15,496 bases of DNA from Phycisphaerae bacterium (GTDB lineage Bacteria > Planctomycetota > Phycisphaerae > UBA1845 > UTPLA1): NCBI GenBank assembly GCA_016935885.1, contig JAFGQA010000006.1, forward strand, positions 1-15,496, given 5' to 3'. Under the pieces are notes generated by a model. The model made no database searches and had not been told where the DNA came from. It was given only the letters and a program-made list of their open reading frames with translations. Numbering within the stretch: the first letter of the stretch is position 1; every line of letters begins with the position of its first letter. Below are positions 6,964-13,940 of this stretch, piece after piece. The translations under genes were made by a program, and so were the position numbers.

Positions 6964-8424
6964 GTGAGACCCGTTGTCAGGTTTTTGAGTGATGAGCTGG
7001 TAAAGCACATTGTCGCGGAGGCGAGGACAATCCTCTGCGAGCTGGGCGTGGAAATCCATAACGACGGCATCCTTTCCATGCTCTCGGATCACGGCGCCAA
7101 CGTGGACGCTGGAAAAGGCCGTGTCTTCCTTGTGGACGACATCATCGACAGGGCACTGGCGGCGGCCCCACGATCGTTCAAGCTCTATGACGTACTCGGC
7201 CGCGAGACGCACGATCTGTCAGGGCACAACGTCCATTTCACGCCCGGCTCAGCGGCCATCAACGTGCTCGATCACGACACAAACAAGATCCGCCCGCCGA
7301 CGACGCGAGATTACGTCAAATACGCAAAACTCGTGAGCCGGCTCGACAACATCGCGTCGCAGAGCACCGCGTTTATCCCGGCCGACGTGCATCAGAACAT
7401 CTCCGACAGCTACAGGCTCTTCCTCAGCCTGATGTTCTGCGAGAAGCCGGTGGTCACCGGGGCGTTCACCGTTGACGCCTTCAACGTCATGAAGGACCTT
7501 CAGATCGCGGTGCGTGGGACGAAGGAGGAGCTGAAGGCCAAGCCCCTGGCGATCTTCTCGTGCTGCCCGACCGCGCCGCTTAGGTGGAGCGATGTCACGT
7601 CGCAAAACGTCGTCGATTGCGCGAATCACTCCATCCCGGTGGAGTACATATCGATGCCGCTGTCTGGATTCGTGGCTCCGGTCACATTGGTGGGTACATT
7701 GGTGCAACACACCGCGGAGACCTTGAGCGGCGTCATCATCAGCCAGCTCGCCAACCCGGGCACGCCTGTCCTCTATGGCGGCTCACCGGCCATCTTCGAC
7801 GTCCGCTACGAGACGACGCCGATGGGCGCCGTGGAGACGATGATGATCGACTGCGCCTACAATGAAATCGGCAAACACCTGGGCCTCCCCACGCAGGCGT
7901 ACATCAGCCTCAGCGACGCAAAGCGACTCGACGCCCAGGCCGGTCTCGAAACATCCATGGGCGCGACGCTGGCCGCCCTCGCCGGCATCAACAACATCTC
8001 CGGGCCGGGCATGCTCGACTTCGAAAGCTGCATCAGCCTCGAGAAACTGGTCCTGGACAATGAAATCTGCGGCATGGCCTTGCGCCTGGTCAGGGGGATC
8101 GAGCCGAAGGAGGACTTCCCGGCCCTGCCGAGGTTCGAGGAGCTTCTCAAAGACCAGCACCTGCTGATATCGAAGCACACGCGGCGGTATCTCAAGGAGG
8201 AACACTTCTTCCCGGGGCCCGCGATCGACCGCGCTAACCGATCCCGGTGGCAGGAAGAAGGCGGCCTGACGTTGCGCGAGCGGGCACACGGGGAGGTCGA
8301 AAGGCTCGTCGCAGGTTATGAATCTTCACGGCTGCCTGATGATATCAAGGCAGAGTTGACCAGACTGATGCAAGGCGAGGCCCGCCGATACGGAATGGGC
8401 AGCCTTCCTCACAGCAGCTTATGA
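6964..8424 (+). CDS. MttB-family (trimethylamine/betaine-type) corrinoid methyltransferase
   Basis: The product has 486 residues, typical of the MttB superfamily, which moves a methyl group from a methylated amine to the Co(I) of a partner corrinoid protein. Family-like stretches include the N-terminal helix ending ILCELGVEIHND (24-35), GSAAINVLD, the repeated TIM-barrel strands (PVVTGAFTVDAF, PVEYISMPLSGFVAPVTLVGTLVQHTAE) and GTPVLYGGSPAIFDVR. There is no in-frame TAG, so this is the non-pyrrolysine branch. Characterised members of that branch use glycine betaine, proline betaine, carnitine or gamma-butyrobetaine; the substrate here cannot be told from sequence alone. The GTG start at 6964 has GGAG 7 nt upstream. 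The stop overlaps the next start (ATGA), so translation is probably coupled. Confidence 0.9.
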   Translation: MRPVVRFLSDELVKHIVAEARTILCELGVEIHNDGILSMLSDHGANVDAGKGRVFLVDDIIDRALAAAPRSFKLYDVLGRETHDLSGHNVHFTPGSAAINVLDHDTNKIRPPTTRDYVKYAKLVSRLDNIASQSTAFIPADVHQNISDSYRLFLSLMFCEKPVVTGAFTVDAFNVMKDLQIAVRGTKEELKAKPLAIFSCCPTAPLRWSDVTSQNVVDCANHSIPVEYISMPLSGFVAPVTLVGTLVQHTAETLSGVIISQLANPGTPVLYGGSPAIFDVRYETTPMGAVETMMIDCAYNEIGKHLGLPTQAYISLSDAKRLDAQAGLETSMGATLAALAGINNISGPGMLDFESCISLEKLVLDNEICGMALRLVRGIEPKEDFPALPRFEELLKDQHLLISKHTRRYLKEEHFFPGPAIDRANRSRWQEEGGLTLRERAHGEVERLVAGYESSRLPDDIKAELTRLMQGEARRYGMGSLPHSSL

Positions 8425-9116
8425 CCGAGATCATCACGCTCAGCGCCGATGAGGTTGTGCCCGACAGGGAGGCCGTTTTTCTGTCGCAGGGCATTCCCGC
8501 TGGGGCTGTTGTGCGGGAGGAGACCCTCGCGGTTTATGCCGCGGCGATCGATCGTTTCTCGGAGGTTGCTGCGCCCATAGGCCTCCTGCTGGAGGTATCC
8601 AAGCGGGACTTCGAGGTGGTTTTCCACGGCGAAGGACGGAACGAGCCGAGGACGCCCGTCGGGGATATCTTCCGCCATGCGGACCATCTGGCTCTTTTCG
8701 CGGCTACCCTCGGCGGACGAATCAGCCGGGAGATCGAGGATCGCTTTGCGACGAATTACTTTGCCCTGGGGGCCGTGTTGGACGCGGTGGCCTCGGTGGC
8801 GGCCGACGGACTGGCCAAGATGGCCGAACGGCGTTTTCTCGACATGCTCTTGGCGGCAGGACGAGCTACGCTTGCCACAACGGCGTTATGCTATAGTCCG
8901 GGTTATTGCGGATGGCACATGAGTGGCCAGAAGAAGCTTTTTGAGTTCCTGCGGCCGGAGCAAATCGGCATCACACTCCGAGACAGCTTCCTGATGGACC
9001 CGTTAAAATCCGTCTCAGGCGTCGTGATCGCCGGCGACAAGCGTCTTCACCGCTTCTCGGCTTCCTACCCGTTTTGCGACCGGTGCAAAACGCACGGTTG
9101 CCGTGACCGGTCTTGA
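8421..9116 (+). CDS. MetH activation-domain-like protein (corrinoid reactivation)
   Basis: The 231-residue product matches the vitamin-B12-dependent methionine synthase activation domain, which uses AdoMet and an electron donor to rescue oxidised cob(II)alamin. Evidence is the block YSPGYCGW (158-165), followed by SGQKKLFEFL and by SFLMDPLKSVSGVV (189-202), equivalent to the AdoMet-binding GY motif and the VSG motif of MetH. The Arg that precedes this motif in E. coli MetH (RxxxGY) is Cys157 here. The last residues carry three cysteines, C219, C222 and C227 (CxxCxxxxC), not part of the E. coli domain. It overlaps the methyltransferase gene by 4 nt and would serve as reactivase for the corrinoid protein encoded 257 nt downstream. 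A RamA-type ferredoxin-ATP reactivase is not present. Confidence 0.85.
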   Translation: MTEIITLSADEVVPDREAVFLSQGIPAGAVVREETLAVYAAAIDRFSEVAAPIGLLLEVSKRDFEVVFHGEGRNEPRTPVGDIFRHADHLALFAATLGGRISREIEDRFATNYFALGAVLDAVASVAADGLAKMAERRFLDMLLAAGRATLATTALCYSPGYCGWHMSGQKKLFEFLRPEQIGITLRDSFLMDPLKSVSGVVIAGDKRLHRFSASYPFCDRCKTHGCRDRS

Positions 9117-9206
9117 GAACCAGTGCCGCGCACAGGGCTCGCCGCGATCGGTCTCGACGACCAACGGCGCCCCGGACAGGGCTTGCCGGGTCCGTGACGT
9201 TTAGGC

Positions 9207-9295
9207 GGGTGCCACTGGCAGCTCGCCTGCCAGTGTGTATGCCCCATGCGCCCACCGGAGAGACCGCACGGGCGGACAAGCCGCCCGTGGCACCC
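9207..9295. repeat. Double-hairpin palindromic repeat inside the methyl-transfer operon
   Basis: Perfect 9-bp terminal inverted repeats, GGGTGCCAC (9207-9215) and GTGGCACCC (9287-9295), enclose two 8-bp hairpins, ACTGGCAG/CTGCCAGT (9214-9221/9227-9234) and ACGGGCGG/CCGCCCGT (9268-9275/9281-9288). The design matches the element at 316-447, with different sequence. It fills the gap between the reactivase and corrinoid genes and could reduce read-through or stabilise a processed mRNA end. Confidence 0.65.
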
Positions 9296-9373
9296 AGAAT
9301 CGAATGCCGCCGAAAGTGTCAGGGACCCGGGCTTGCCGTTTGGCGGACCGTAACGTAAGGAGAGTCAATCGAC

Positions 9374-10030
9374 ATGGATATACTGGCACAGATTTCGGAA
9401 AACCTGCAGCGCGGTGATGACGAGAAGGTCTCGGACCTCACCCGGCAGGCGATCGAACAGGGCATTCCGCCCAAACGGATATTGGATGCCGGCCTCATCG
9501 CCGGCATGGATGTGGTCGGTGGGCAGTTCAAGGCGCATGAAATCTTCCTGCCCGACGTGCTGATGGCGGCCAAGGCCATGTATGCCGGCATGGACCATCT
9601 CAAACCGCTCCTCATCAAGGAGGGCGTGCCGTCTTTGGGCAAGGTGGTCCTCGGCTCGGTTCAAGGTGACTTGCACGACATCGGCAAGAACCTCGTCGGC
9701 ATCATGCTCAAGGGGGCGGGCTTTGACGTCATCGACCTTGGAAACGACGTCGCCCCCGAGCGATTCGTGGAGACGGCAAAGTCGGAGAACGCCCGCGTCA
9801 TCGGCATGTCCGCACTGCTGACCACGACCATGCCCGCGATGAAGACCGTGATAGGCCTTGTCAAGGAGCAAGGCCTCGCCGGCAAGATCAAGACCGCGGT
9901 GGGTGGTGCGCCCGTGTCGCGGGAGTATGCCCGCGAGATCGGGGCGGATGCGTACGCTTTCGATGCCGCCAACGCGGTGGATTGCATGAAGGAACTGATC
10001 GGCGAGGATCGACATGAGGCCATTCCTTGA
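9374..10030 (+). CDS. Corrinoid protein (methyl carrier, MttC/MtgC type)
   Basis: This is a 218-residue methyl-carrier protein. Residues 1-85 are the helical cap domain (B12-binding-2 type) and 88-210 the Rossmann-like cobalamin-binding domain. The cobalt-ligating motif is GDLHDIGKN with His101 as lower axial ligand. SALLTTTM (about 146-153) and GGAPVS (about 177-182) are the other nucleotide-tail contacts of the family. It should accept a methyl group from the MttB-type enzyme and pass it on, here most simply to the homocysteine methyltransferase whose gene overlaps its end by 17 nt. AAGGAGAG stands about 10 nt before the ATG. The cofactor form would be base-off, His-on, as in methionine synthase. 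Confidence 0.95.
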   Translation: MDILAQISENLQRGDDEKVSDLTRQAIEQGIPPKRILDAGLIAGMDVVGGQFKAHEIFLPDVLMAAKAMYAGMDHLKPLLIKEGVPSLGKVVLGSVQGDLHDIGKNLVGIMLKGAGFDVIDLGNDVAPERFVETAKSENARVIGMSALLTTTMPAMKTVIGLVKEQGLAGKIKTAVGGAPVSREYAREIGADAYAFDAANAVDCMKELIGEDRHEAIP

Positions 10031-10919
10031 ACGGCTCGAGGCCGGAGACACGCTGGTCTGCGACGGCGCGATGGGCACGATGCTTTTGCAGCGGGACCTC
10101 AAACAGGGAGAATGCCCCGAAGCAGTGAATCTGACGCGCCCGGAGGTCCTGGAGGAGATTGCCCGCTCGTACTTCGATGCCGGGGCGGACATCATCGAGA
10201 CCAACACATTTGGCGCGTCTCCTTTGAAGCTAGCCCAGTACGGCCTCGACGCCAAGGTGGACGAAATCAACCGCGGCGCGGTCCACGCCATTCGCCGTGT
10301 CGTCGAGGATCGGGCATACGTGGCCGCATCCTGCGGGCCCACCGGCAGGCTGTTGAAGCCGTACGGAGACACCGAGCCTGAGGATGTGTACAACAGCTTT
10401 GCCAGACAAATCGAGTGCTTGATCGGCGCAGGCGTTGATGTGATATGCGTCGAGACCATGATCGACCTGGCGGAAGCGAGCTTGCTCATCAAGGCGGCAA
10501 AGGACGTCTCTCCGGCGACGCCGGTGACGGCGACCATGACATTCGACCCCACGCCGAGAGGCTTCTACACCATCATGGGCGTGAACATAGAGAAGGCTGC
10601 ATCGGGGCTTCGGGAGGCAGGGGCGGACGTGGTCGGCTCGAATTGCGGCAACGGCATCGAGAACATGGTGAAGATCGCCGCCGAGTTCCGCAGGTGCAGC
10701 GACCTCCCCATCATCATCCAATCCAATGCGGGTCTCCCACAAACGAAGGGCGGCGTGACGGTATACCCCGAGACGCCCGATTTCATGGCCGACAAGGCGA
10801 GGGCACTGGTCGCCGCCGGCGTGTCCATCATCGGCGGCTGCTGCGGGACCACGCCGGACCACATCCGAGCCATACGTAAGATGGTCGATTCCTCAACGAG
10901 CCGGCGGGGCACATCGTAA
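10014..10919 (+). CDS. Homocysteine S-methyltransferase (stand-alone MetH N-domain type)
   Basis: The 301-residue zinc-dependent TIM-barrel enzyme equals the first module of cobalamin methionine synthase. The N-terminal DGAMGTMLL (17-25) and ETNTFGAS (62-69) are family signatures. The zinc ligands are Cys211 in SNCGNG and the Cys276-Cys277 pair in GGCCGTTP. No folate-binding, cobalamin-binding or activation module follows; those roles are on separate genes, with the folate module missing. The start overlaps the corrinoid gene by 17 nt, in another frame, with GAGGATC upstream as a ribosome site, so the two proteins are made together. Expected reaction: methyl-corrinoid protein plus homocysteine to methionine. 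Mu/BHMT-type folate-free methylation without corrinoid is possible but less likely given the context. Confidence 0.92.
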   Translation: MRPFLERLEAGDTLVCDGAMGTMLLQRDLKQGECPEAVNLTRPEVLEEIARSYFDAGADIIETNTFGASPLKLAQYGLDAKVDEINRGAVHAIRRVVEDRAYVAASCGPTGRLLKPYGDTEPEDVYNSFARQIECLIGAGVDVICVETMIDLAEASLLIKAAKDVSPATPVTATMTFDPTPRGFYTIMGVNIEKAASGLREAGADVVGSNCGNGIENMVKIAAEFRRCSDLPIIIQSNAGLPQTKGGVTVYPETPDFMADKARALVAAGVSIIGGCCGTTPDHIRAIRKMVDSSTSRRGTS

Positions 10920-11157: not shown

Positions 11158-11329
11158 GTGGTCGGGTGGCATGCTTTCACGCGAAACTGGGTGGCATGCT
11201 TTCACGCGACGGAGTCGCGGGCAAGCATGTTTTGTTTGAGAGGAAACATGCCTACCCGGGCTGCGCCCGTGAGGGCATGGCACCCGGCTGCGCCCGTGAA
11301 GGCATGGCACCCGGCATGGCACCCGGCGA
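11158..11329. repeat. Cloverleaf repeat, copy 1, with duplicated arms
   Basis: The 97-bp core (11189-11285) begins GGGTGGCATGCTTTCACG and ends with its imperfect inverted partner, CGTGAGGGCATGGCACCC. Within it, CGCGAC/GTCGCG, GGGCAAGCATG/CATGCCTACCC and CGGGC/GCCCG can form three hairpins, giving a four-armed fold. A second left arm is repeated 25 bp upstream (11164) and the right arm is repeated downstream (11286-11312), followed by a third GGCATGGCACCC. GTGGTC (11158-11163) precedes the element as in the other copies. It lies between two convergent genes. Confidence 0.75.
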
Positions 11330-11927: not shown

Positions 11928-12053
11928 GTGGTCGGCATGCTTTCACGCGACATTGGGTGGCATGCTTTCACGCGACGGAGTCGCGGGTAAGCATGTTGAT
12001 ATCAAGAAAGACATGCCTACCCGGGCTGCGCCCGTGAAGGCATGGCACCCGGC
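11928..12053. repeat. Cloverleaf repeat, copy 2
   Basis: The 96-bp core (11955-12050) is nearly identical to the other copies except for 17-18 nt in the loop of the middle hairpin. A partial second left arm (11934-11950) precedes it, and GTGGTC at 11928-11933 is the shared left flank. The right end abuts the first codons of the remnant membrane-protein frame. Confidence 0.75.
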
Positions 12054-12535: not shown

Positions 12536-12692
12536 GTACGCCGTCTCCGTAACGTCAAGTGCGGCCTGACGGACGGGATTCTCTGAACAGCCATGACGGA
12601 GCGCTGGTCTTGGAGGCGAGGCGTACGCGGGCCATAATGGTCTTGACGAGCCAAGTGAGGCTGGCGGACGAGGACTCGGTGGAGCAGCCGTG

Positions 12693-13718
12693 ATGGACGA
12701 GGTCAAGTGGCTCCTGGAAGACGACGCGCCCGGCGTAGCGTATGTGGCAGGCCATCGGCTGCTCGGCGAGGATCCCGCCTCGCGCAAGATGAAGTCGCTC
12801 CGCAGGCGGTGCAACGAGTATCCACCTGTCGCCCGCATGCTGGACCGCCTCGATGAAGCTCTTGCCGCCGGCAACTACAAGAAGTACGAGGGGGCTTATT
12901 GGACGCTGATTTTTCTCGCGGAGATGCAGGCCGACGGCCGGGACAAGCGGACCTGCAAGCTGGCTGATCACGTTCTGAGCACTCAGTTGCCCAACGGCGG
13001 GTTCAGCGCCTCGGGTAAGCCGCGGTACGAGATCGTCTGCCTGACCGCGAACCTCCTCCGGTCCCTGGTGCATTTCGGATATGGCGAGGACGAGCGTGTC
13101 GTCCGCGGTTACAGGCGTTTGATCGAGCGCATCGTCCCCCACGGTGGCGTGCCCTGCGCGGTGATGGACTACACCCTGCACGCCTCGTGCAAGATGACCC
13201 TGCCGCAGACGCTGCGCTGCCTGGCCGTTGCTCCACCTAGCGTGCCCAAGAGATCGCTCAAGAAGGCCCGCGATCTTTTGGTCGATCAGCTTCTTGCCGT
13301 CCGCGTCTATCGCTACGTCCGACCCGATGCCAAGGCGTACTACGTCGCGTTGGACAAGCGGCCCAAAGGCATGAAGGTACGCGATTTCAAGGCCCGGTGG
13401 CTGGCCGAGCACAAAGTGTCGGACGAAGACTTGTTGCCCAAGCCTGGGTGGTTGCGGTTCGGATTCCCCCGCCACTACAACCCGGACCTGCTGGAAGCGA
13501 TGCTCGCGCTGGCAGAGCTGGGCGTCAAGCACACGCCGGTTCTTGACGATGCCCTGGACCACATCGAGACGAAACGTGGCAAGGACGGGCGCTGGAAACT
13601 GGCCGATTCGCTCAACGGCAAGATGCTGGCCGACATCGAGCGAAAGGGGAAGCCCTCTAAGTGGATCACGTTGCGGGCCCTGGTCGTGCTCAATCATTAT
13701 GGCCGCATTGATGTGTAA
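12693..13718 (+). CDS. Terpenoid-cyclase-like alpha/alpha-toroid protein of unknown function
   Basis: The product has 341 residues from the ATG at 12693, with GGAG 8 nt upstream; the GTG at 12690 is an equal-frame alternative. The sequence is all-helical, with repeated inner/outer helix pairs and glycine turns: GAYWTLIFLAEMQADGRD, LSTQLPNGGFSASG, then YNPDLLEAMLALAELG and DGRWKLADSLNGKML, ending KGKPSKWITLRALVVLNHYG. This pattern is that of the prenyltransferase/squalene-cyclase toroid superfamily. I see no DXDD cyclase motif, so hopene cyclase activity is unlikely. Several Cys residues lie in the central part (VPCAVMDYTLHASCK). No signal peptide. It stands alone, without a neighbour on its strand to suggest a pathway. 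Confidence 0.8.
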   Translation: MDEVKWLLEDDAPGVAYVAGHRLLGEDPASRKMKSLRRRCNEYPPVARMLDRLDEALAAGNYKKYEGAYWTLIFLAEMQADGRDKRTCKLADHVLSTQLPNGGFSASGKPRYEIVCLTANLLRSLVHFGYGEDERVVRGYRRLIERIVPHGGVPCAVMDYTLHASCKMTLPQTLRCLAVAPPSVPKRSLKKARDLLVDQLLAVRVYRYVRPDAKAYYVALDKRPKGMKVRDFKARWLAEHKVSDEDLLPKPGWLRFGFPRHYNPDLLEAMLALAELGVKHTPVLDDALDHIETKRGKDGRWKLADSLNGKMLADIERKGKPSKWITLRALVVLNHYGRIDV

Positions 13719-13827: not shown

Positions 13828-13940
13828 GTGGTCGGGTGGCATGCTTTCACGCGACGGAGTCGCGGGTAAGCATGTGGATATCGGGGAAGATATGCCTACC
13901 CGGGCTGCGCCCGTGAAGGCATGGCACCCGGCACCCGGCC
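13828..13940. repeat. Cloverleaf repeat, copy 3
   Basis: The 96-bp core (13834-13929) has single arms, GTGGTC as left flank (13828-13833) and a short CACCCGG repeat at the right end. In the middle hairpin the base of the stem keeps pairing with a G-T wobble (CATGT against ATATG, where copy 2 has ACATG). It lies between the convergent ends of the toroid gene and dnaK. Confidence 0.75.

What the first reader, a model, noticed from the sequence alone, without database searches (positions are those of the whole stretch)
6964..10919. Split, folate-free methionine synthase fed by an MttB-type methyltransferase
Four plus-strand genes encode an MttB-family enzyme, a MetH-type activation protein, a corrinoid carrier and a stand-alone homocysteine methyltransferase, with overlaps of 4 nt and 17 nt at two junctions. 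These are the modules of cobalamin methionine synthase on separate polypeptides, except that the folate-binding module is replaced by an enzyme taking methyl groups from a quaternary or tertiary amine. The inferred pathway is amine or betaine to Co(I) to homocysteine. This would be a corrinoid route to the job BHMT does with zinc alone. Split MetH proteins and non-pyrrolysine MttB systems are each known; this combination deserves a direct test.
Basis: partly seen in the sequence, partly recalled or inferred. Interest (0 to 1): 0.75.

Follow-up and report, generated by a model that had tools for sequence, protein, structure and literature searches.

The report
Methionine-making operon that skips folate
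Four neighbouring genes look like a vitamin-B12 methionine factory in which the usual folate-binding part is replaced by an enzyme that takes methyl groups from another, still unknown, compound; relatives of the set occur in many poorly known bacterial groups and in some are the only methionine synthase that could be found.

Summary
In detail: MttB-family enzyme (6964-8424), MetH-type activation protein (8421-9116), corrinoid protein (9374-10030) and homocysteine S-methyltransferase (10014-10919), with 4-nt and 17-nt overlaps. The same order follows MttB in 47 of 62 relatives with room for it, under more than ten phylum-level names. A second gene order with the same modules occurs in a sister MttB clade. 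Among 84 Zixibacteriota genomes all 37 with this MttB also have a stand-alone homocysteine methyltransferase, against 17 of 47 without it. In 21 of those 37, and in 3 WOR-3 chromosomes, no MetH, MetE-type protein or methylene-THF reductase was found, and no full pterin-binding protein but a DHPS-like one. A folate-free methionine synthase is the best reading. Three corrections: the window's nearest relatives also carry MetH, so here it is probably a second route; the four residues proposed to bind glycine betaine in MtgB are replaced, so the donor is open; and a pterin-containing cousin (MtgBCDE, PNAS 2025) is published. Novelty: new variant of a known kind.

The parts
6964..8424 (+). MttB-family (PF06253) methyltransferase without pyrrolysine, 486 aa, GTG start; proposed methyl-donor module
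   Evidence: PF06253 260 bits; best solved relatives 9yce 'Glycine betaine methyltransferase' 189.5 bits and 2qne 188.8 bits; 80 loci kept at 69-85% identity; a single PF06253 match in 31 of 34 genomes
7909..7911 (+). Leu316 codon at the position that is pyrrolysine in Methanosarcina MttB
   Evidence: alignment to 7xcl
8421..9116 (+). stand-alone MetH-type activation protein, 231 aa; overlaps MttB by 4 nt; proposed reactivation of the corrinoid
   Evidence: PF02965 34.9 bits; AlphaFold model mean pLDDT 87.4, best Foldseek match 1j6r (T. maritima TM0269) E 1.2e-11, then MetH activation domains
8907..8909 (+). Cys163 of the motif PGYCGW, invariant in 30 aligned relatives but Gly in the second gene-order clade
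9075..9101 (+). C219-x2-C222-x4-C227 C-terminal motif of the activation protein, possible metal or Fe-S site (inference)
   Evidence: invariant in 30 aligned relatives and kept in the four second-type clusters examined; pLDDT is low here
9374..10030 (+). corrinoid (B12) carrier protein, 218 aa, cap domain plus B12-binding domain
   Evidence: PF02607 and PF02310; 1y80 196.7 bits; below the curated cut-offs of both MtgC models
9668..9685 (+). DxHxxG cobalt-ligand motif (Asp99-His101-Gly104; role of the motif recalled)
   Evidence: sequence; at least 93% conserved in 66 rows and in the second-type clusters
10014..10919 (+). stand-alone homocysteine S-methyltransferase, 301 aa; overlaps the corrinoid gene by 17 nt; proposed acceptor module
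   Evidence: PF02574 252 bits; closer to MetH of T. maritima (1q7m, 180.7 bits) than to human BHMT (1lt7, 75 bits)
10644..10646 (+). Cys211, first zinc ligand of the homocysteine module
   Evidence: aligned to Cys207 of 1q7m (that it binds zinc is recalled); conserved
10839..10844 (+). Cys276-Cys277, second and third zinc ligands
   Evidence: GGCC motif aligned to 1q7m (zinc role recalled); conserved

Best explanation
The four genes encode a dedicated, folate-free, B12-dependent methionine synthase on separate polypeptides. MttB binds a methylated donor (most likely a small tertiary or quaternary amine, identity unknown) and passes one methyl to Co(I) of the corrinoid protein. The methyl-Co(III) corrinoid protein then docks on the zinc homocysteine methyltransferase, which makes methionine. 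The activation protein restores Co(I) after accidental oxidation to Co(II), by a MetH-like reductive methylation, with electrons perhaps routed through its Cys cluster. Shown: gene content, order, conservation, motifs, co-occurrence, and genomes in which no other methionine synthase and no methyl-THF route was found. Inferred: each methyl transfer, the acceptor homocysteine, the donor class, the redox mechanism. In the window's own lineage it is most likely a second route beside MetH.
For: Cys211/276/277 of the HMT, the corrinoid motif DxHxxG and MttB core residues are kept in relatives. Order MttB-Act-Corr-HMT in 47 of 62 loci with room; the same modules in the order Corr-HMT-Act-MttB in a sister MttB clade about 50% identical. 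Of 84 Zixibacteriota genomes 37 carry the MttB; 37 of 37 also have a stand-alone HMT, against 17 of 47 without MttB (Fisher 5e-11). 21 of the 37 have no MetH-length HMT frame, no PF01717 and no MTHFR, and in each of the 21 the stand-alone HMT is the only PF02574 match, beside MttB in 20 of them (not in G093). PF00809 gave a DHPS-like hit in 20 of these 21, two of them with a further weak or partial hit, and none in one. G019, G021, G024 and G027, records titled chromosome, lack the same genes. Five of the pterin hits were checked and are dihydropteroate synthases by curated cut-off. S-adenosylhomocysteine hydrolase, a source of homocysteine, is in 19 of the 21 and in the three WOR-3 genomes. 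PF06253 is single in 31 of 34 genomes, which fits a dedicated rather than catabolic role.
Against: In the 84 genomes the operon is not anticorrelated with MetH (p 0.18), MetE-type (p 0.23) or MTHFR (p 0.38). 15 of 17 Planctomycetota-titled genomes have a MetH-type frame too. HMTs 60% and 65% identical to the window's stand without MttB, Act or Corr beside them in the MttB-free genomes G088 and G100, so this HMT type does not strictly need MttB. The WOR-3 chromosomes G019, G021 and G027 hold a second, weaker PF02574 protein or its fragments (67-109 bits) of unknown role. 15 of 62 loci lack one or more partners downstream. No SAM or cobalamin riboswitch was found in the window and 13 loci. Methionine import, or direct sulfhydrylation with methanethiol, was not tested. 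I have no activity data.
Confidence: 0.65

Rival explanations
1. Same chemistry, other purpose: the set is an osmolyte or amine demethylation and salvage route in which homocysteine is merely the methyl sink (as with BHMT), used when the amine is plentiful; MetH remains the house-keeping methionine synthase.
For: 15 of 17 Planctomycetota-titled genomes, the window's relatives, carry a MetH-type frame, and the genomes of L001-L004 carry MTHFR.
Against: In 21 Zixibacteriota and 3 WOR-3 genomes no other methionine synthase of the kinds searched was found. PF06253 is single in 31 of 34 genomes, unlike the up to seven in marine bacteria with mtgC and mtgD (PMC12478193). Apart from antisense shadow frames, no further gene family lies at one fixed offset in more than about seven of the 80 loci (those families were not all annotated).
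Confidence: 0.2
2. A hidden folate link: as in MtgBCDE, a pterin-binding protein encoded elsewhere charges or discharges the same corrinoid protein, so methyl-THF is the normal donor and MttB only feeds extra methyl groups.
For: That is the published model for MtgBCDE (PMC12478193). Short stand-alone pterin-binding frames that do not look like DHPS occur in at least 4 of 80 genomes (G026, G051, G068, G074), and further partial hits (G024, G053, G057, G064) are unclassified.
Against: No clear stand-alone protein of that kind in the other 76, though many of these are incomplete drafts; where checked (5 genomes) the DHPS-like hit is DHPS; MTHFR is missing in 22 of 37 MttB-bearing Zixibacteriota.
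Confidence: 0.13
3. The final acceptor is another thiol or selenol, so the HMT-like protein is not a methionine synthase.
For: The HMT scores below the curated cut-offs of all five NCBIfam models that it matches.
Against: The three Cys and other residues shared with T. maritima MetH are kept, and all five NCBIfam matches are homocysteine methyltransferase or MetH families.
Confidence: 0.07
4. Chance neighbourhood of unrelated methyltransferase genes in the window.
For: The 257-nt gap before the corrinoid gene.
Against: The order recurs in 47 of 62 loci under more than ten phylum-level names, and a second permuted order exists.
Confidence: 0.01

Closest known systems
MtgBCDE of Ruegeria pomeroyi and split MetH of Phaeobacter inhibens (PMC12478193, PMC5764234)
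   Same: MttB-family enzyme, corrinoid protein and homocysteine methyltransferase on separate polypeptides; demethylation and methionine synthesis joined through one corrinoid protein
   Different: There the pterin protein MtgD is essential for both tasks; proposed reactivation in P. inhibens is by RamA-like DUF4445 and DUF1638 proteins (PMC5764234). Here no pterin protein is in the operon and in many genomes none but a DHPS-like one was found; the reactivation protein is MetH-type; the plasmid-borne MttBs listed (25 of 194 records, mostly alphaproteobacterial) are at most about 30% identical
MtgABC of Desulfitobacterium hafniense (glycine betaine to THF; described in PMC12478193)
   Same: non-pyrrolysine MttB plus corrinoid protein
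   Different: acceptor is THF through MtgA; proposed betaine-binding residues Y94, N199, R309, H345 (docking, PMC6855144) are Ser96, Cys201, Gln311, Ser346 here
Core methionine synthases MesA-MesD (PMC7857596)
   Same: methionine without folate; MesA-C probably take the methyl from corrinoid proteins
   Different: those are MetE-related; this acceptor module is MetH-like (PF02574) and comes with its own corrinoid protein and donor enzyme
Split MetH of Thermotoga maritima (1q7m + 1j6r)
   Same: stand-alone activation protein and MetH-type homocysteine module; best sequence matches among solved structures for both
   Different: its MetH keeps the folate domain (recalled); 1j6r has only 10 residues after the aligned part, so no room for the C-terminal Cys motif
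Betaine-homocysteine methyltransferase (BHMT)
   Same: net job: methyl from a methylated compound to homocysteine
   Different: BHMT is one zinc enzyme of about 406 aa without corrinoid (recalled); the window HMT is 301 aa and scores 181 bits to MetH against 75 to BHMT

Membership tests
MttB superfamily (PF06253) | match over the curated cut-off across most of the length | tested here: met
   260.2 bits, cut-off 25, profile 29-491 of 500
Pyrrolysine MttB (TIGR02369) | in-frame TAG (pyrrolysine) and score over 525 bits | tested here: not met
   Leu316 at that place; 355 bits
MtgB, glycine betaine-specific | residues proposed to bind glycine betaine (Y94, N199, R309, H345) | tested here: not met
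   Ser96, Cys201, Gln311, Ser346 by sequence alignment (PMC6855144; chain numbering read as one ahead of the paper's); the residues themselves rest on docking
MtgC corrinoid protein (NF047995/NF047996) | score over 310 / 370 bits | tested here: not met
   198 / 210.5 bits
MetH-type homocysteine S-methyltransferase (PF02574) | full profile match with three zinc Cys | tested here: met
   251.9 bits, profile 1-283 of 283; C211, C276, C277
MetH activation domain (PF02965) | fold and sequence match | tested here: met
   34.9 bits, cut-off 25, partial; Foldseek 1j6r E 1.2e-11, 1msk, 6bdy, 6bm5
MetH activation domain (PF02965) | AdoMet-dependent reactivation | not testable with these tools
   the Arg of the RxxPGY motif is Cys157 in the window, Arg in many relatives; that this Arg binds AdoMet in E. 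coli MetH is recalled
Classical MetH | pterin (methyl-THF) domain PF00809 | tested here: not met
   no PF00809 hit in the 12 window proteins scanned against Pfam
MtgBCDE split methionine synthase | dedicated pterin protein MtgD | tested here: not met
   none in the operon; in 25 operon-bearing genomes (chosen for lacking MetH) 24 have one DHPS-like hit, two of these a further partial or sub-cut-off hit, and one has none
Folate-independent methionine synthase (functional class) | methionine from homocysteine without folate | not testable with these tools
   genomic inference only

The most novel reading that the evidence does not exclude
An undescribed class of methionine synthase: a pterin-free four-protein corrinoid enzyme, spread over many candidate phyla and the sole route to methionine in some, driven by a distinct MttB subfamily with an unknown and possibly non-betaine methyl donor, and serviced by an activation protein with a Cys-cluster redox site in place of, or beside, AdoMet/flavodoxin chemistry.
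Probability: 0.4. Interest if true: 0.78.

Novelty: new variant of a known kind. Interest (0 to 1): 0.6.

Why it matters
Many genomes of uncultured bacteria appear unable to make methionine because no MetH, MetE or methylene-THF reductase is found (44 of the 84 Zixibacteriota genomes here). A folate-free route would explain part of that gap, add a methyl donor to central sulfur metabolism, tie B12 supply to amine or osmolyte supply, and give the annotation 'trimethylamine methyltransferase' in these phyla a biosynthetic rather than methanogenic meaning. It is directly testable with three or four small proteins.

Tried and rejected
The window's own genome is not held, so presence of MetH there is inferred from relatives. 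A riboswitch as regulatory proof: Rfam over the window and 13 loci gave no SAM or cobalamin riboswitch; five loci matched PYLIS_3 just over its cut-off inside mttB, near the codon where pyrrolysine sits in the Methanosarcina gene; I read this as mttB homology, not pyrrolysine use, since those frames are open there. Mutual exclusion with MetH/MetE/MTHFR as proof of function: tested on 84 genomes and not found. Promoter and terminator scans of the operon region were at chance level. Glycine betaine as the settled donor: rejected for lack of the proposed residues, though those rest on docking. BHMT-like direct transfer by the HMT alone: disfavoured. Three MttB-bearing plasmids were opened; no corrinoid or homocysteine methyltransferase gene is annotated within the stretches shown. 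Literature: eight searches. I found no paper describing this pterin-free operon; the library lacks most subscription journals, so this is no proof of absence. Papers seen: PMC12478193 (abstract, passages, whole Discussion); PMC7857596, PMC5764234, PMC6855144, PMC10418091, PMC12316311, PMC7495880 (passages only); all others in search listings only.
Full report
WHAT IS THERE. The window encodes on the plus strand an MttB-family protein (6964-8424, 486 aa), a MetH-type activation protein (8421-9116, 231 aa), a corrinoid protein (9374-10030, 218 aa) and a homocysteine S-methyltransferase (HMT, 10014-10919, 301 aa). The 4-nt and 17-nt overlaps are as reported; a 257-nt gap separates the second and third genes. 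No genome is held for the window. MttB, the activation protein and their nearest relatives point to Phycisphaerae/Planctomycetota.

WHAT EACH PART IS. MttB: closest solved structures 9yce (Glycine betaine methyltransferase) and 2qne at 189 bits, trimethylamine methyltransferase 7xcl 181 bits, 4yyc 113 bits; Leu316 stands where the special residue stands in 7xcl. Corrinoid protein: 1y80 197 bits, then the MttB corrinoid partner 7xcn and, lower, MetH, with DxHxxG. HMT: T. maritima MetH 181 bits against 75 for human BHMT; the three cysteines that bind zinc in MetH (recalled) are kept. Activation protein: only part of PF02965 matches, but the AlphaFold model (mean pLDDT 87) is closest to 1j6r and then to MetH activation domains.

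CONSERVATION. A scan of genome contigs with an alignment of 11 MttBs found 246 relatives, of which the best 80 were kept, 69-85% identical. Record titles name Phycisphaerae/Planctomycetota, WOR-3, Stahlbacteria, TA06, Zixiibacteriota, Gemmatimonadota, Fermentibacteria/Aegiribacteria, Cloacimonadota, Neomarinimicrobiota, Aminicenantes, Acidobacteriota, Myxococcota, Eisenbacteria, Bacteroidetes, Ignavibacteriae and Fischerbacteria. 62 of the 80 have at least 2,600 nt after MttB, and in 47 of the 62 activation, corrinoid and HMT genes all follow in that order. Of the 15 exceptions five lack only the activation gene (L015, L016, L024, L071, L073), seven have one or two other partners, and three (L028, L029, L034) show none downstream. 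Apart from antisense shadow frames, no other gene family lies at one fixed offset in more than about seven of the 80 loci.

A SECOND GENE ORDER. More distant MttBs of Zixibacteriota (about 50% identical) lie in clusters with the order Corr-HMT-Act-MttB: all four genes seen in L081, L082 and L083; in L084 the HMT lies at the expected place but was masked by an opposite-strand frame in my ORF list. A tree of 35 MttBs groups both gene-order types on one well supported branch (100/99), apart from MttBs of Leisingera, Mesorhizobium, Halomicrococcus and one extra MttB of G014; the other extra G014 protein falls inside on a long branch, and long branches make outer placements unsure. Persistence of the same modules through a rearrangement argues for one function.

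CO-OCCURRENCE. 84 Zixibacteriota genomes (90% completeness requested): 37 carry this MttB. A stand-alone HMT of about 300-390 aa is present in 37 of 37 of them and in 17 of 47 others. One of the 47 (G102) has an activation gene and HMT at a contig start, so its MttB may simply be missing from the assembly.

IS IT THE METHIONINE SYNTHASE? Among 34 operon-bearing genomes from several phyla, 15 have a MetH frame of 1,000 aa or more with PF00809 and PF02574, and 7 more have shorter MetH-type frames. Five (G019, G021, G024, G027, G033) have no MetH, no PF01717 protein and no MTHFR; the first four come from records titled chromosome. In the 84 Zixibacteriota, 21 of the 37 MttB-bearing genomes (G024 and G033 among them) lack all three; in each of the 21 the stand-alone HMT is the only PF02574 match, and it lies beside MttB in 20 (not in G093). 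Of those 21, 20 have a DHPS-like PF00809 hit and one (G128) has none; G024 and G136 have a second weak or partial hit. Five such hits (G019, G021, G024, G027, G033) were confirmed as dihydropteroate synthase. S-adenosylhomocysteine hydrolase is present in 19 of the 21 and in G019, G021 and G027. So in the 21 the operon is the only candidate found for remethylating homocysteine, and no methyl-THF source or methyl-THF-binding protein was found. In G019, G021 and G027 a second, weaker PF02574 protein or its fragments also exists (67-109 bits).

RESULTS AGAINST. Presence of the operon is not anticorrelated with MetH (10/37 against 7/47), PF01717 (8/37 against 16/47) or MTHFR (15/37 against 24/47). 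23 MttB-free genomes also lack all three, and 15 of those have a short HMT frame. I opened nine of the 23: HMTs 60% and 65% identical to the window's stand alone in G088 and G100; G087 has a 59% one whose upstream side is cut by the contig end; G102 has an activation gene with it; in G090, G109, G115 and G146 the HMT is distant (28-36%), and in G101 none was matched by BLAST. Of 17 Planctomycetota-titled genomes among the loci, 15 have a MetH-type frame with PF00809, two only as 590- and 821-aa frames; the genomes of L001-L004 all have MTHFR. The window's organism therefore probably has MetH as well. Short pterin-binding frames that are not DHPS-like occur in at least 4 of 80 genomes (G026, G051, G068, G074), and partial hits in G024, G053, G057 and G064 are unclassified.

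THE DONOR. PF06253 is single in 31 of 34 genomes. The residues proposed to hold glycine betaine in D. hafniense MtgB (Y94, N199, R309, H345; docking in PMC6855144) correspond to Ser96, Cys201, Gln311 and Ser346 (alignment; reading the chain as one residue ahead of the paper puts all four on the named letters). In the 13 MttBs compared, Ser96, Cys201 and Glu354 are constant, Gln311 is His in three of four second-type members, and one type-1 member (L099) has Ala for Ser346. So glycine betaine is not favoured, a methylated amine remains likely by family, and the donor is unknown.

REACTIVATION. In 30 aligned activation proteins Cys163, Cys219, Cys222 and Cys227 are invariant; the last three are also kept in the four second-type clusters, where Cys163 is Gly. 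T. maritima 1j6r has only 10 residues beyond the aligned part. The model is uncertain at these places, as could be expected if a metal is missing; that it is a Fe-S site is inference. The Arg of RxxPGY is Cys157 in the window but Arg in many relatives.

AGAINST WHAT IS KNOWN. [quoted passage not shown] meliloti. PMC5764234 shows the three-part MetH of P. inhibens, with RamA-like and DUF1638 proteins proposed for reactivation. PMC7857596 describes folate-independent MetE-related synthases, three families of which probably take methyl groups from corrinoid proteins. The present operon differs by the absence of a pterin protein, a distinct MttB subfamily (at most about 30% identical to the 25 plasmid-borne ones listed of 194 records), a MetH-type activation protein and conservation as one dedicated unit. 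I call it a new variant of a known kind.

VERDICT. Observation confirmed; interpretation partly supported; folate-free methionine synthase 0.65; interest 0.6.

Noticed in passing
window 11189-11287, 11955-12053, 13834-13932: Three dispersed direct copies of a 99-nt element downstream of the operon, two of them 95% alike and the first 62% without gaps, with further 30-34 nt pieces nearby; possibly a lineage-specific intergenic repeat.
   Followed up: partly
window 12690-13718 (+): 342-aa open frame with no Pfam match and only a sub-threshold NCBIfam match, lying between two copies of the repeat.
   Followed up: partly
L007, L018, L030, L043, L053 (about 945 nt into mttB): Rfam PYLIS_3 (pyrrolysine insertion element of mttB) is matched just over its cut-off in MttB genes whose frames are open there; the family may detect mttB homology rather than pyrrolysine use.
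   Followed up: no
L065 (G029) and L059 (G026), mttB: The genome search reports one in-frame TAG in the MttB of G029 and one TAA in that of G026; in L065 the open frame ends at about 430 codons, not at the pyrrolysine position. Sequencing error or decay not told apart.
   Followed up: no
L086:5615-6514 (G088) and L087:5590-6489 (G100): Homocysteine methyltransferases 60% and 65% identical to the window's stand alone with no MttB, corrinoid or activation gene beside them in MttB-free genomes; their methyl source is unknown.
   Followed up: partly
L100:2640-6624: In a genome where MttB lies elsewhere (L099), activation and HMT genes follow a BcrA/BadF-type ATPase and a 2Fe-2S ferredoxin-like protein, a possible electron supply for corrinoid reactivation.
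   Followed up: partly
L104:4989-8163: Gemmatimonadota genome G014 has two further MttB-family genes side by side, one 50% and one 26% identical to the window's, with no hit to the other three operon proteins among frames of 150 aa or more in the 12 kb fetched.
   Followed up: partly
G009, G013, G018, G023, G028 (774-798 aa frames): Five WOR-3/Caldifarciminota-type genomes with the operon also have a short MetH-like frame with a weak pterin match (E 6e-16 to 2.5e-19), and an MTHFR-like match within 2 kb of it.
   Followed up: no
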